DNA from: Gonapodya sp. JEL0774
Lineage: Eukaryota > Monoblepharomycota > Monoblepharidomycetes > Monoblepharidales > Gonapodyaceae
Direction of reading: 5' to 3'
Assembly (NCBI GenBank): GCA_027604505.1
Contig: JADIIX010000036.1
Location: forward strand, 112,613 to 176,612
DNA: 64,000 nt
Below are positions 1 to 22,618 of this stretch, in pieces (the stretch's first letter is position 1; every line of letters begins with the position of its first letter). The translations under genes and the position numbers were made by a program. Under the pieces are notes generated by a model that saw only the letters and a list, made by a program, of their open reading frames with translations, made no database searches and was not told the origin of the DNA.

Positions 1-629
1 GAGAGAGTTTCATCAGTTAATCACTCACCAGCGCGAAGGTAGTGTTTCAGTGAGTGCATGAATGCCACGATTAGTTTAAATGCTTTCTGAATGGCCTCCT
101 CCCCTTGTGGGCTTTTGTTCAAATATACTCCGGTCACCGTAAGCCGCATAATGTTCCTCATTTGAGACGTAATGGTTCCAAAGACCTTGCGACCTTCACT
201 AAAACGATCATATCCTTGATTTGATCTAAAAGCTAGGAGCAGCGACAAAACGACTCCGAGCTGCAAGCCATGGATCAGTTTCAGCGACAGAAAAAGGCAA
301 CGTCTAACATAATTGCAAGATCCTCACAAGAGTAATGAAAGAATTCTGAGAAAGTGATATCGACGCTATTGGGAGAGGCGTGTATGTATTGCAGTCATCG
401 TATATCCTGAAATGGACAACTGAAACGAACCGCCTGCGTAGTAGTTAAGAGCAGCAATCAAAACTGTCCAGATAGTGAGTAGGAAAACTGATGGCAGAAC
501 TTGGAATGCGATGGAGCCGCGGTGGAAGAAGAGAGCCTCGTAAAACCAGCTCTGGGACGAAAAACGGCATGAACACCTCCTAGATTGATGGAAAGCACTT
601 CTCAGTCCGCAAACGCACGCGCTTGACAC
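1..629 (-). CDS. Bestrophin-family anion channel, copy A (3' end cut by window edge)
   Basis: Bestrophins are pentameric anion channels; this fungal/bacterial-type branch is also known as UPF0187. Three exons are visible on the minus strand. The first runs from about 575 to 431 and carries SWFYEALFFHRGSIAF and a hydrophobic segment. A 38-nt exon at 365-328 encodes NSFITL. A long exon at 260-29 starts LGVVLSLLLAFRSNQGYDRF and ends at HYLRA before a GTGAGT donor. The C-terminal half, which in copies B-D holds the last membrane segment and the FGxDxND motif, lies outside the window. The N-terminal start is unresolved; no convincing ATG exon was found in the correct phase. Identity is firm because every visible block aligns with copies B, C and D. 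Confidence 0.82.
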
Positions 630-940
630 GTCGAATGTGCTTATGCACGGGGTGGTGGTGTGGAAAGGAAAACATCTTTCAATCTGGAGAACTATTTACT
701 TTCAAATCTAGGAGAGGAGGTGGCCCTGGAAGCCCACCACCACAACAATCCTCCTTTCACATCCGGAATTTTATTCTCAGTTACAAGGATTTTTGGATTA
801 TGAAATAGGATTTACGTGGGTAGTTGCAAGGATGAAGCTCCCGGGAATAAGCGACAGAGTAATCAACTAAACATGCGCGGCAATAAGCTGAGAGGGCACA
901 ACGGACTTTCAAAAGCGAGTTGAACCTTATTTGCAAGAAA

Positions 941-2752
941 TTAAGGACTGACCCTTTGAAGCTCGTCCTTCAGAACATCGCAATAGAGTTGCAGTGGAAG
1001 GCTTGAGAACGAAGTCGACGCAGTTGAGAACAAACAAAAACCAAGAACAGAAAACAATGACTCACTCGTTGGGATCTGATTTTAAAAGAACCACATCGAG
1101 ACAAATGTGCATGAAGGTACAGGGGTGGTCAGTAGCCGGCCAAGCTCAAAACTGACAAGGAGGATCCCTCACCATCGCTGTTCAAGAGAAGTGAGAAGTT
1201 CGAAATTGAGGTAAAAAGTAGGACATGCGAGTCAAATCTGATGATTCGATCACTTACCCGAAAGGCATCTAGATATATGCAGGGAAGGAAAAGAACGAGA
1301 TGATATAACCGCGCCAATGAATGACGTGTGCGTCTTATCCCACCTCCAATTGCTTGGCAATCATCTCTATACCCAATAGACAATACGAAACCAGCCCAAC
1401 GACCAAAATCATCCACCAACCAAGGTCTTTGCTCAGCTGTATGGGTAGGAATGCGCAATACGCTAGGAGGAGCTGCTTAAGGTGGATGTTGTAGGCAGGC
1501 GGTCTTCAAACCAGAGTTAAGATTTGATATATCGCTCGGGACGGATCCACAAAAATCTGCCCTCACATGGGTGTTGTAGCGATGCGCTCCAACGTTGTCG
1601 TTGCATCCACTATGTTTGAAATCAAACCATCGCAACCATTGGTGTATGGACCGAGATTCATTAGTTTCTGATCCAGACAGTATGCAAAATGTTTGGACAG
1701 AGCTTGGAGGATGCGGACTGCGGTGGAAAAGAGGAACATGCCAATCAATAACTACAGAATGCTCAGTGAAGATCCATCGACGACTTACAAGGCATTCGGT
1801 GTGGGAAAATCTTGACAACCTTGACCGGTTTTCCATCTACATTGCTATCTTCAGTGGCCGGAGCAGCTTGAGCCACAGGATGTGCCGCAGTTACGACAAG
1901 ATCAATGTGGTCCGAAGCAAGCGCACTGTTTGTTCGAAGTAGATTCAGAAGAGGAATGTTCGAAGGTAGCGGAACAACATCCATGACGTCGTCCATGTCC
2001 TTCCAATCCTCGGGGTGATGTTCTTTGCGGCACAGGTCAAGAAATAGCTACGACACCGCACCAACCCGTTCAAAAGAACCTACCACCACGAAGGTAGTGC
2101 CTTAAAGAATAAGCAAAGGCCACAGTAAGCTTGTATGCCTTTGTTATTGCGGCATTGCCTGCCTCTGATGGGTTAACGGTGAGACCCGTCACGAATAGTC
2201 GAGTCATGTTCCGAAGTTGCGAAGTGATGGCTGCCCAAGTCTTTCTGCCCTCGCTATATCGTTCGTACGCTTGAGAAGAGCGAAACGTTACGAGGAGACC
2301 GAGAACAACACTGAGCTTTATGAAACAGGAACGATAAGACGAGCGTGAGCTGGTGCGATCCACCTGAAGCACGCATACCAAAGTTATCAGCGAATTGGGC
2401 AAGACTATCTGCAAGGTCGTATATCGGTTGATCACAGCGATAACGGTGGTCCATATGACCAGGACAATAACGGATCCCAGCTTTTGATCGTGTGGATACG
2501 TGTGGGCCTTCGTTCTCAAAATCGCGACGAACAGCACTTACCACTTGAAATGTCACGGAACCCCGGTGACTCAAGGCTTCAATCCAAAGATTCTAAAATG
2601 TCAGAGGGTTGGTGTGGTTTCATTTGTAGGGAAAGCAAATGTAGAACGGTCACGTTGAGAAGGAAGCCTTCAGCAATTGAAAGGAGGGAGCTCGGCAAAC
2701 GCTGTGCGTACACGGCGACGACTCCGTAGACGTTCCCGCGCAGGATAAGCAA
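941..2752 (-). CDS. Bestrophin-family anion channel, copy B
   Basis: Second bestrophin copy, read as exons 2592-2542, 2480-2379, 2315-2084, 2022-1789, 1717-1567, 1503-1344, 1268-1258 (11 nt), 1177-1173 (5 nt), 1075-1066 (10 nt) and 1001-941, plus a first exon ending at 2654 whose start codon I could not find. Landmarks are NLWIEALSHRGSVTF, LGLLVTFRSSQAYERYSEGR, then the last membrane stretch and LGIEMIAKQLE. The three tiny exons then spell MPFG-DDPND, and the last exon gives LPLQLYCDVLKDELQRV and a TAA. MPFGDDPNDLPL aligns with the NPFGEDDDDFE calcium clasp of human bestrophin-1 (family knowledge). The gene is head-to-head with copy C. Stopping the gene before the microexons would lose this conserved end. 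Confidence 0.85.
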
Positions 2753-2946
2753 TCAGATCAGTGTGGTCGTGGTCTTTGTTCATTATTTTTTTTGTCAATA
2801 GTCGATCTTTTAGTCTGCCACATGAAGCAGCCCTCGTCAATGGGGGCACCTCATTCCCTTTTAGACCCCTTCCACATCCACATCGTATTTCAACCCCCGC
2901 GTCAAAGATTTCGTAGCAAGGATGCCCAATCCCAGCAATCGTCTCC

Positions 2947-4622
2947 ATGTTTTCGCTTCCAAGCAGGTCTGCTCGTGGGATACTGTTGAATCTCAAACAC
3001 CAAGTTCATGTTACATTTTCTGTCCAGAGTTTGCTATCTGAGGCTCTGTCGATTGAAGGGAGCATATTACACCAAGTGGTATGTGTTTTCAGAGAAAAAA
3101 GATCTTTCGAAACTCTCTGGAACCACCCTCTGTGACCTAGCTTCCCTCTGTGCTCGTTATGACCGTTTGGGCTGCTTTAGTCGCCGTGTTAAATCGTTAT
3201 ACAGATCTTGGACTTCAGCTTCCTCAGTCGTTTGTGACTTTGGTGAGTGTGGGAAGTGAGACTGACTGAATCATAGTCACGAAGTGCCGCTGACAGGGTT
3301 AACGCGGTTTCTGTCACCACTGATATCGAGCCATATTTAATTTATCTGTTTATTCCCTCAGCTTGGAGTGGTTCTTGGTTTTCTTCTTTCTTTCAGGTCC
3401 GGTCAAGGATATGACCGATTCAGTGAAGGGCGACGAGCTTGGGGAAGCATGACAAGCAACCTCAGGAATCTAGTGCGCATTTATTGCACGGTTTTAACGG
3501 TAGCCAAGACACCTGAAAGGGAAGAGATTGTCAGCAAAGTTGGAAAACTCGCATTGGGTTATGCTTATGCTGTGAAACACTATCTGCGCGCCGGTAAGAG
3601 CTGGTCGATATTGATTCACCTTGTCAGTGTTCAGGAACAGTGGTTTATCACCCGCAGAATATGACCCGTCTGAGTGGCCCGATCTTGCGGATGTTGCAGA
3701 GTATCTCCCCCTCGATCCGTATCCCGATTTCACCGAGGTGTACCTAAAACCAGATTCTAAAACGCTTGAACACAAAACGAATTATGAAAATCCTCGTCGG
3801 TTCCAGAGTGTGGACTACCCAGAGAAGTACACAGGTATCCCGATGGAAGCACCCTACGGCAAGCTCGATGCAAGATCACCCACTCTCTTGTTTTGGACGT
3901 AGTTCGAATCGCTCAAAGTCTTGGACGTATCAACAGTCAATGTTTGGAAAGAAATTGGTATCCTGCCGCCCCATACGGAGTCTCGATCGAAGCTCTCCTC
4001 ACCGGTATTATAGATTCAATGACATCTCTTGAAAGGATCGCTATCTCACCAGTGTAAGTGTTATCATCTTGTTATCTGTAAACGTCGTGCATCCAACATC
4101 TTTTTTGCTGATGCCTGGTCAGCCCGAGAGCTTACAACATCCACCTCAAGCAGATCCTTTTGATTTACTGTGGTTTCCTCCCTATGCAGCTTATTCAAGG
4201 TATCGGATGGTGGATGGTACTGGTAGTGTTCCTTGTTTCGTACTGCTTACTCGGGATTGAAATGATCGCAAAGGAGCTTGAGATGCCGTTCGGGTGAGTG
4301 TAGCAATTCGACCAGTCCGAAAACTTATTTTCAATCAGTGGTATTTTGCAAAATCTCTTATGCCCATTATCTTGCGGAACTAAGATACGGTAAGTGGAGC
4401 AGTCTTAACGATCCGCAGAAGAGGTCTTAATGCCACAGCAAACTATAATTTAATTCACTTCGAAATTTCAGACTATAATGAGTGAGTTGCAGGTGCTCTC
4501 TCAATATTACTGGGAGAACGACTTTGAGTATTTCATCTCATTTCACAAGCCTGGATCTGGATCTCTTCTGCGACACTCTACGGGACGAGATTGACACGGT
4601 AAGAGATGGATGCGCGTCTTAA
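2947..4622 (+). CDS. Bestrophin-family anion channel, copy C
   Basis: Third copy. The start at 2947 gives an N-terminus reaching SLLSEALSIEGSILHQV, followed by a GTATGT donor at 3079. Later exons are 3141-3242 (LPSVLVMTVWAALVAVLNRY), 3362-3593 (LGFLLSFRSGQGYDRFSEGR), one from 3658, 4123-4293 (last membrane segment to LEMPFG), 4385-4389 (5 nt), 4472-4481 (10 nt) and 4550-4622. The 5- and 10-nt exons join in phase to give FGYDYNDLDLD. Between about 3800 and 3880 the frame must shift to reach HSLVLDVVRIAQSLG. An intron is needed there, but several donor/acceptor pairs fit and I could not choose one. The exon boundary after YLRA is shared with copy B, whereas copy D has no intron there. Confidence 0.85.
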
Positions 4623-4852
4623 ACTTTGAAGTCGAGTAACTTCATTCTGTTGTTAACTGTTAAGATGCTTGCTTCATATGTATAGATACATCGCAAGCAG
4701 GAGCGATAATAGCTGCATTGCACTGAAATCACATATTAACACACAAATGCATATACCAATATATTAAGTTGATATTCGATATCGAGAGTCAGAGTGGTGC
4801 AAGAACGCCAAAGTCAAGTCATTCATCGGGCTCAATTTCCCTCCTTGCCCAT

Positions 4853-20946: not shown

Positions 20947-22618
20947 ATGTCAGCCAGTGGCCGAAATGTGACGCGGACCAATAGCTCGTCATCCTTGGGC
21001 TCTATTGCACCATCTGTGTCCGAGCACTTATGGTTCGAGGCCTTTACGGTCAGAGGAAGTATTGCTCTCCAGGTGAGTGCACAAATCGGAGAATCAAGAT
21101 CCGATCCACTACCCTGACCACTTCTCACCAGGTCTTGCCCCCAGTTGTCGTCCTGGTGCTATGGACGACACTTGTGGCGTATCTTAACCTGAGCATGACC
21201 ACTGATTTCAGACTTCCCACCACGTTCATCACTCTGGTAAGCAACTCGTTGAAAAATTCCGCCATGGCTTCATGAACGAAGTCCGACGTTTTTGCCAGCT
21301 CGGGGTTGTCCTCGGCCTTTTACTTGCATTTCGATCGGGTCAAGCATACGACCGTTACTCCGAGGGAAGAAAAACATGGGGGACCCTGCAAGGCCAGTGC
21401 CGGAACGGGGTCCGTTCGATGATGCTGGCCTACGTGGACACAGAAGAAGGAATTGCCGCACGAGCAAAGGCCGTGAAACTGGTCATTGCGTTCGTTTTCT
21501 CCTTGAAACATTATTTGAGAGCTGAAAGAGACCCAAGCCAGCTTTCGGACATGCTGGATTTAATGGACGTAATTCCAATTGCCGCCTTTTCGTCTCCAAG
21601 TGGAACCGAGAATGGAAAGTATGAGGTCACAGAGTCGGATCCTCTTCTCGGCCCGTATGCCTCTATTGTATTTGAAAACGGGGAGGGGATGCCTTGTAAG
21701 TGAATCTGTACTACTCTTCTCCGATTGCGACTGCGACTGATACGTTGATTGCCTGCTCATCATACTACAGTCAAGATCGTTTATGTTTTGGCGAAACACC
21801 TTCAAAAGTCCGTCCATGATAACCTTTTGGTGGGAATTTACTCAAGTACAGTTCAAGGGTTGCCCGCTGCGTTCACTGAGACAGGAACCACATTGGAGCG
21901 CATCGCAACGTCACCAATGTGAGCCATTTATGTTATGCAGAGATCCTTCAGGAGTCCACCCTTTGGTGACACCTTGTTGTTTTGTTGTTTCCACACCAGA
22001 CCACCTGCTTACTCGATTCACCTGAAACAAATTTTGTTCATCTATTGTTTCTTCTTGCCTCTTCAGCTTGTCAAAGATCTCCAGTGGATGGTAATATTAG
22101 TGGTATTCTTGGCTTCGTATTGCTTGCTTGGGATAGAAATGATTGCACGACAACGTAAGTTGGTTAAGTTCCGGTAAAAAGAGTAACTTCGCCGGCGTTT
22201 GATATTTTTTTCCCTTGCATTCGTATAATTTTATCCATAATTTGGCAGTTGAAATGCCCTTTGGGTGAGTTCAGAAGCTTTCGCTGCTGTTCCCTTCCTG
22301 ACCTTTTATGTCTTCCTTCAGGTACGGTGGGTTCAATGCGACCGCAATGTTGAATGAAACCATAACTCATTGACCTCACGCGGTGGTCTGCGCCAATACC
22401 TTTTTAATCAACGTGCAGATGAGAATGAGTGAGGATAAACCAGTTTTTTGGAATCCACTTTATGGTCTTAATTGCCTTACTCTTACAGTCTCCCAATGGA
22501 TGCTCTGGCTCAGGACGTCAAGAGGGAAATTCTTGATGTGAGCAGTTGTCCCAATTATATTTGCCTGCCATGCAAACACCTCCCTTGTGTGCATAAGATT
22601 GTCAACACGCAATTGTAA
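20947..22618 (+). CDS. Bestrophin-family anion channel, copy D (complete, nine exons)
   Basis: The best-resolved bestrophin: exons 20947-21072, 21132-21236, 21299-21695, 21771-21918, 22000-22154, 22249-22264 (16 nt), 22322-22326 (5 nt), 22419-22428 (10 nt) and 22489-22618. They sum to 363 residues in one frame. It starts MSASGRNVTRTNSSSSLG. Landmarks are HLWFEAFTVRGSIALQ, VLPPVVVLVLWTTLVAYLNL, LGVVLGLLLAFRSGQAYDRY, LVKDLQWMVILVVFLASYCL, LGIEMIARQLEMPFG and, across the tiny exons, YDENDLPMD. Bestrophins form pentameric chloride/anion channels; the last motif aligns with the animal calcium clasp (family knowledge). The gene lies 16 kb from copies A-C, so it is a dispersed paralogue. Confidence 0.93.

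What the first reader, a model, noticed from the sequence alone, without database searches (positions are those of the whole stretch)
22322..22428. Constitutive-looking 5-nt and 10-nt exons in bestrophin copy D
In copy D the coding sequence between MPFG and LPMD exists only as a 5-nt exon (GTACG, 22322-22326) and a 10-nt exon (ATGAGAATGA, 22419-22428), each flanked by AG and GT. Splicing them gives FGYDENDLPMD, the expected family motif, and the full gene then sums to an exact 363-codon frame. Five-nucleotide exons are among the smallest known, and the exon-definition model of splicing struggles to explain them.
Basis: partly seen in the sequence, partly recalled or inferred. Interest (0 to 1): 0.85.

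Follow-up and report, generated by a model that had tools for sequence, protein, structure and literature searches.

The report
Two tiny exons in fungal channels
In an aquatic fungus, a five-amino-acid piece of a channel-like membrane protein appears to be encoded by two exons only 5 and 10 letters long, and the five related genes that could be read share this arrangement; such tiny exons are rare but already known in plants, people and other fungi.

Summary
Copy D carries AG|GTACG|GT (22322-22326) and AG|ATGAGAATGA|GT (22419-22428); spliced, they restore FG-YDEND-LP of the Bestrophin_2 family. The genome is Gonapodya sp. JEL0774. All 5 bestrophin genes found in the held assembly have a 5-nt then a 10-nt exon at the same place, phases 2-1-2. 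These paralogues are 41-49% identical and the introns around the tiny exons no longer align, so selection has kept the layout. The 5+10 solution ranks first in 5 of 5 genes. Correction: the 363-codon frame probably reads through a 60-nt intron (22538-22597); D is then 343 aa. No transcript data were available. Precedents exist: a 1-nt exon in Fusarium P450 genes (PMC12940212), a 5-nt + 12-nt pair in rice (PMC8831610), a constitutive 4-bp exon in human MPC1 (PMC9929638). Most likely mechanism: ordinary, one-after-another removal of short introns by intron definition. New member of a known kind.

The parts
20947..22618 (+). Copy D, Bestrophin_2 gene: exons 20947-21072, 21132-21236, 21299-21695, 21771-21918, 22000-22154, 22249-22264, 22322-22326, 22419-22428, 22489-22537, 22598-22618; 343 aa. 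The start codon is the one of the deposited protein P0001.
   Evidence: Hand-built model, open frame; Pfam PF25539 237.6 bits with the 363-aa version; P0001
22249..22264 (+). 16-nt exon directly before the pair (LEMPFG)
   Evidence: same length and phase in copy A
22322..22326 (+). 5-nt exon GTACG
   Evidence: AG before, GT after; best-scoring solution
22419..22428 (+). 10-nt exon ATGAGAATGA
   Evidence: AG before, GT after; best-scoring solution
22265..22321 (+). 57-nt intron before the 5-nt exon
22327..22418 (+). 92-nt intron between the micro-exons
22429..22488 (+). 60-nt intron after the 10-nt exon
22538..22597 (+).
   Evidence: Position shared with A, B and C; junctions of A and B agree with deposited protein P0003
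3028..4685 (+). Copy C (first coding exon not modelled)
4385..4389 (+). Copy C 5-nt exon ATACG
   Evidence: weakest acceptor of fifteen and only 1.9 bits ahead of another 5-nt candidate
4472..4481 (+). Copy C 10-nt exon ACTATAATGA
867..2586 (-). Copy B (first coding exon not modelled); 11-nt exon 1258-1268
1173..1177 (-). Copy B 5-nt exon CGATG (minus strand)
1066..1075 (-). Copy B 10-nt exon ATCCCAACGA (minus strand)
29..551 (-). Copy A, three upstream exons inside the window; its micro-exons lie outside the window at contig C36:111609-111613 (ATATG) and C36:111509-111518 (ATGAAAACGA)

Best explanation
The 5-nt and 10-nt segments are genuine coding exons of a Bestrophin_2-type channel gene of Gonapodya sp. 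JEL0774, inherited from before its five paralogues split, and both are normally included because including only one breaks the reading frame. Shown by sequence: canonical splice sites, fixed lengths and phases, and a restored conserved loop (YDEND in D) in 5 of 5 copies. Inferred: each short flanking intron (57, 92 and 60 nt in D) is recognised as a unit (intron definition) and the three are removed one after another, so that after the first removal the tiny exon is part of a larger one and nothing has to be recognised across 5 nt. Inferred too: the micro-exons arose when introns settled close together in an intron-dense genome and stayed because the motif cannot be lost.
For: Exact layout in 5 of 5 genes. 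Best-scoring solution in 5 of 5 genes; 0 of 20,000 shuffles reproduce the motif through a 5+10 pair. Paralogues 41-49% identical; introns of the trio align no better than shuffles (mean z -0.05, -0.14, 0.34) while the next exon does (3.14). The 15 introns touching the micro-exons have stronger donors and acceptors than the 32 others (p 0.024 and 0.002). Deposited protein P0003 holds both micro-exon peptides for B and A. 4 of 5 G. prolifera orthologues (P0004, P0006, P0007, P0127) carry the segment; the fifth, P0002, ends in a tail that, read two bases out of frame, fits NDLPMDALAQDVKREI at 12 of 16 positions (next place 9; 11 of 2,000 shuffled tails reach 12 or more anywhere in D). Each single skip or intron retention tried breaks the frame or brings a stop in 5 of 5 genes.
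Against: No transcript was seen. All splice sites in the models are GT/AG because the models were built so. In C the margin over a second 5-nt candidate is 1.9 bits and the acceptor is weak. The deposited models of D and of its G. prolifera orthologue do not contain these exons. A sixth paralogue could not be tested. Splicing order and intron definition were not tested. Splice-site scores come from few, related genes.
Confidence: 0.9

Rival explanations
1. The two micro-exons are a both-or-none cassette under regulation: skipping both removes exactly five codons in frame and gives a channel lacking the loop that stands where animal bestrophins bind calcium.
For: 5+10=15: skipping both keeps the frame in 5 of 5 genes, while skipping one does not. 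The peptide lies in the loop between the last transmembrane helix and the next helix in a model of orthologue P0006.
Against: No intronic similarity is left that could hold a shared regulatory element. The segment is present in 19 of 21 listed other fungal proteins, and the other two records end within or before it, so the loop seems needed. Splice sites are strong, not weak.
Confidence: 0.05
2. There is one long intron (224 nt in D), the protein simply lacks the five residues, and the micro-exon matches are chance.
For: Skipping both leaves an open frame.
Against: Skipping both ranks 8th of 8, 13th of 14, 21st of 27, 31st of 42 and 6th of 8 in D, A, B, C and E. Gaps of 224-269 nt would be twice the longest other intron (131 nt). 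Shuffles. Five copies agree.
Confidence: 0.03
3. The 5-nt exon is a recursive splice site rather than an exon: it starts with GT in copy D and is cut out again.
For: Copy D's exon begins with GT.
Against: The exons of A, B, C and E begin with AT, CG, AT and TC. Losing only the 5 nt breaks the frame in 5 of 5 genes.
Confidence: 0.01

Closest known systems
1-nt exon of CYP621A P450 genes of Fusarium (PMC12940212; parts 1 and 2 of 3 of the text read)
   Same: Fungal; ultra-small exon inside a conserved motif; kept across orthologues (20 CYP621A genes in its abstract); automatic gene models wrong there; inferred first from phase and homology
   Different: One exon of 1 nt, with RNA reads as support; here a tandem 5-nt + 10-nt pair in five paralogues without reads
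Conserved plant micro-exons of 1-15 nt, including adjacent 5-nt and 12-nt exons of rice Os08t0562700 (PMC8831610; abstract and passages)
   Same: Tandem ultra-small coding exons, kept over long times, often missed by annotation
   Different: Plants; supported by RNA-seq and RT-PCR; another gene
4-bp micro-exon of human MPC1 (PMC9929638; abstract and passages)
   Same: Ultra-small exon not divisible by three, reported as constitutively included
   Different: Flanked by long introns and attributed to strong exon definition; here the introns are 57-92 nt
Fungal micro-exons: 20 nt in Xlr2 of Trichoderma virens (PMC11121469; abstract and passages) and exons down to 6 bp in P450 genes of Phanerochaete chrysosporium (PMC1184071; abstract and passages)
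   Same: Fungal genes with very small exons
   Different: Xlr2's exon is regulated by glucose and four times longer; neither concerns bestrophins or, in what was seen, a fixed tandem pair

Membership tests
Ultra-small conserved coding micro-exon (plant/Fusarium kind) | Internal exon of 15 nt or less with GT/AG sites | tested here: met
   5 and 10 nt in 5 of 5 genes; sites chosen as GT/AG when modelling
Ultra-small conserved coding micro-exon (plant/Fusarium kind) | Needed for the frame and for a conserved motif | tested here: met
   Best profile score with both; loss of one breaks the frame
Ultra-small conserved coding micro-exon (plant/Fusarium kind) | Conserved among homologous genes | tested here: met
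   5 of 5 paralogues in one genome; DNA of other species was not available
Ultra-small conserved coding micro-exon (plant/Fusarium kind) | Spliced into mature mRNA | not testable with these tools
   No reads available; deposited P0003 contains the peptides of A and B, method of prediction unknown
Regulated, frame-neutral micro-exon (animal neuronal kind; features recalled) | Each exon length divisible by three | tested here: not met
   5 and 10 nt; only the sum, 15, is divisible
Regulated, frame-neutral micro-exon (animal neuronal kind; features recalled) | Inclusion changes with cell state | not testable with these tools
   No expression data
Recursive-splicing exon (features recalled) | Exon begins with a 5' splice site, conserved among copies | tested here: not met
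   1 of 5 copies begins with GT
Bestrophin_2 (PF25539, bacterial/fungal bestrophin) | Score above the curated cut-off | tested here: met
   237.6 bits, cut-off 27, copy D in the 363-aa version
Bestrophin_2 (PF25539, bacterial/fungal bestrophin) | Bestrophin fold | tested here: met
Calcium-gated animal bestrophin | Calcium clasp that binds Ca2+ | not testable with these tools
   The loop lies at a comparable place (passage of PMC9076864); binding unknown; KpBest lacks the site (passage of PMC8496536)

The most novel reading that the evidence does not exclude
The paired 5+10-nt exons are an ancient, obligately coupled splicing cassette: two micro-exons, neither divisible by three, are handled by the spliceosome as one 15-nt unit, and their joint skipping removes the loop after the last transmembrane helix in a whole family of fungal channels.
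Probability: 0.05. Interest if true: 0.7.

Novelty: new member of a known kind. Interest (0 to 1): 0.4.

Why it matters
Five diverged paralogues whose introns no longer align are a natural series for asking what a spliceosome that removes short introns needs in order to include a 5-nt exon. The case also shows how the C-terminal part of a channel gets lost or garbled in deposited proteins: the models of copy D and of its G. prolifera orthologue are both wrong in this region.

Tried and rejected
A PF01062 search of the own genome found nothing and its controls rang nowhere, so it says nothing; the Pfam family is PF25539. Rfam gave no match in the window at gathering thresholds. Considered and rejected: recursive splicing, one long intron, the stretch 22322-22428 as one retained exon (early stop in D). 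A P0005-like sixth paralogue could not be tested: none of the 11 matches in the held assembly is it. Null for intron placement: 9 introns placed at random in 1,032 nt give an internal exon of 5 nt or less in 30% of trials, and two adjacent ones of at most 10 nt each and 15 nt together in 3.6%. Dense introns alone can thus produce such exons; what is notable is that they are tolerated and kept. The branch-point scan was crude and settled nothing. Literature: the library holds open-access papers only and terms were few. 'bestrophin'+'microexon' gave 1 paper, seen only as a listing; 'bestrophin'+'fung'+'exon' gave 40, 15 listed, none about this by title; 'microexon'+'chytrid' gave 3; 'microexon'+'fung' gave 88, 25 listed. 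Protein searches listed 120 of 157 and 120 of 1,282 hits; motif statements cover listed rows only. The fungal rows (29, of which 8 Gonapodya) were picked by me by their names from those lists; some of them were in the query alignment. Structure jobs take no hand-spliced protein, so I modelled the G. prolifera orthologue P0006 and did not submit copy D.

Full report
What was checked. The window lies in contig C36 of a 25.0-Mb, 381-contig assembly. Copy D belongs to Gonapodya sp. JEL0774: the deposited protein HDU93_006163 (P0001) is 100% identical over 71% of the query and lies on a contig of the same length as C36, 176,612 bp. The spliced product matches Pfam Bestrophin_2 (PF25539) with 237.6 bits.

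The observation. At 22322-22326 stands GTACG and at 22419-22428 ATGAGAATGA, each between AG and GT. Joined to TTTGG upstream and TCTCCC downstream they encode FG-YDEND-LP. No unspliced frame of 22265-22488 on either strand encodes this. With the outer splice sites fixed, placements of 0, 1 or 2 GT/AG exons with introns of at least 45 nt were enumerated: in D 36 were tried, 8 are open and in frame, and 5+10 wins with 251.7 bits against 237.2 for the next and 225.9 for skipping both. The profile came from the 113 of 120 first-search hits that are not Gonapodya.

Paralogues. Genome searches found five bestrophin genes: A (C36, straddling the left end of the window), B, C and D (window) and E (contig C27). 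The models of A, B, C and E lack the first coding exon. Each gene has a 5-nt and then a 10-nt exon with phases 2, 1, 2: A ATATG/ATGAAAACGA, B CGATG/ATCCCAACGA, C ATACG/ACTATAATGA, D GTACG/ATGAGAATGA, E TCTTG/ATTACAATGA. The 5+10 solution is first in 5 of 5 genes. In C it is only 1.9 bits ahead of another 5-nt candidate, and its acceptor is the weakest of the fifteen. A and D have a 16-nt exon directly before the pair, B an 11-nt exon with a shifted start, C and E no intron there; the shared pair is therefore probably older than those introns.

Chance and selection. In 4,000 shuffles for each of five genes, the motif arose through a 5+10 pair in 0 of 20,000 and through any one or two exons totalling 15 nt in 1 of 20,000. 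The paralogues share 41-49% identity, and in the tree each pairs with a G. prolifera protein; the pairs of A, B, C and E are strongly supported, the D pair less so (86/81, with P0005 next to it). The three introns around the micro-exons align between paralogues no better than shuffles (mean z -0.05, -0.14, 0.34; 10 pairs each), while the following exon does (3.14). Lengths, phases and coding sense were thus kept while the introns drifted. The 15 introns touching the micro-exons have better donors and acceptors than the 32 others (p 0.024 and 0.002); these samples are small and come from related genes.

Deposited models. P0001 stops at the end of exon 4. P0002, the G. prolifera orthologue of D, continues after EMPFG with an unrelated tail; read two bases out of frame, the tail fits NDLPMDALAQDVKREI at 12 of 16 positions, the best place in D (next 9), a value that 11 of 2,000 shuffled tails reach somewhere in D. 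So the coding exon seems to be there but the model missed the micro-exons. P0003 fuses B and A and contains both micro-exon peptides, in agreement with my B and A models; how it was predicted is unknown. Four of five G. prolifera orthologues carry the segment (P0004, P0006, P0007, P0127), and so do 19 of 21 other fungal proteins picked from the lists; the other two records end within or before it.

The 363-codon sum is right for that model. But A, B and C have a phase-0 intron right after the 49-nt exon, and P0003 bears out the A and B junctions. In D the same place offers gtgagc...cataag, 60 nt, divisible by three and stop-free, leading into IVNTQL-stop: 343 aa. The frame cannot decide between the two; the paralogues favour 343. 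E has no intron there.

How it probably works. The 47 modelled introns are 57-131 nt long, and D has 8.7 introns per kb of coding sequence. G. prolifera had the highest intron density of the fungi in one large analysis, 4.5 per kb (passages of PMC8476143). Recognition across such introns needs no complex spanning the 5-nt exon. A plant study argues that the introns flanking micro-exons are removed consecutively rather than at once (passages of PMC8831610); the same is the most economical reading here, and is inferred. Each single skip or retention tried breaks the frame or brings a stop in 5 of 5 genes; only skipping both keeps the frame. Constitutive inclusion is thus the expected state, and double skipping the only silent alternative.

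Known precedents. A 1-nt exon in Fusarium CYP621A genes with RNA support (PMC12940212, parts 1 and 2 of 3 read); plant micro-exons of 1-15 nt, including adjacent 5-nt and 12-nt exons in rice (PMC8831610, abstract and passages); the 4-bp human MPC1 exon (PMC9929638, abstract and passages); a 20-nt exon in Xlr2 of Trichoderma virens (PMC11121469, abstract and passages); exons down to 6 bp in Phanerochaete P450 genes (PMC1184071, abstract and passages). The finding is a well-supported new case of this kind. Distinctive are the tandem pair, neither member divisible by three, and its presence in five old paralogues of a zoosporic fungus. Missing are transcripts and the DNA of other species.

Noticed in passing
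window 20947-22618 and 867-2586; contig C36:111299-113163: Deposited JEL0774 models are wrong here: HDU93_006163 (P0001) is cut short at the end of exon 4 of D, and HDU93_006156 (P0003) fuses B and A.
   Followed up: partly
window 22249-22264, 1258-1268; contig C36:111709-111694, 112036-112009: Further small exons in the same family: 16 nt in D and A, 11 nt in B, 28 nt in A, so that D and B have three consecutive exons of 16 nt or less.
   Followed up: partly
window 22538-22597: A probable 60-nt intron that is divisible by three and stop-free, so that its retention would be invisible to a frame check.
   Followed up: partly
P0005 (HDU93_009612), deposited 4,691-bp contig: A sixth JEL0774 bestrophin, closest to D (58% identical), not found in the held assembly; its deposited model also ends early.
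   Followed up: partly
window 1-4685 and contig C36 to the left: A, B and C lie side by side (A and B on the minus strand, C on the plus strand); the G. prolifera orthologues of A, B and C also share one contig length (370,423 bp).
   Followed up: no
L013:2590-2815 (upstream of copy E): Long C runs, a very G+C-rich stretch and a short run of N just upstream of copy E, perhaps an assembly gap or artefact.
   Followed up: no
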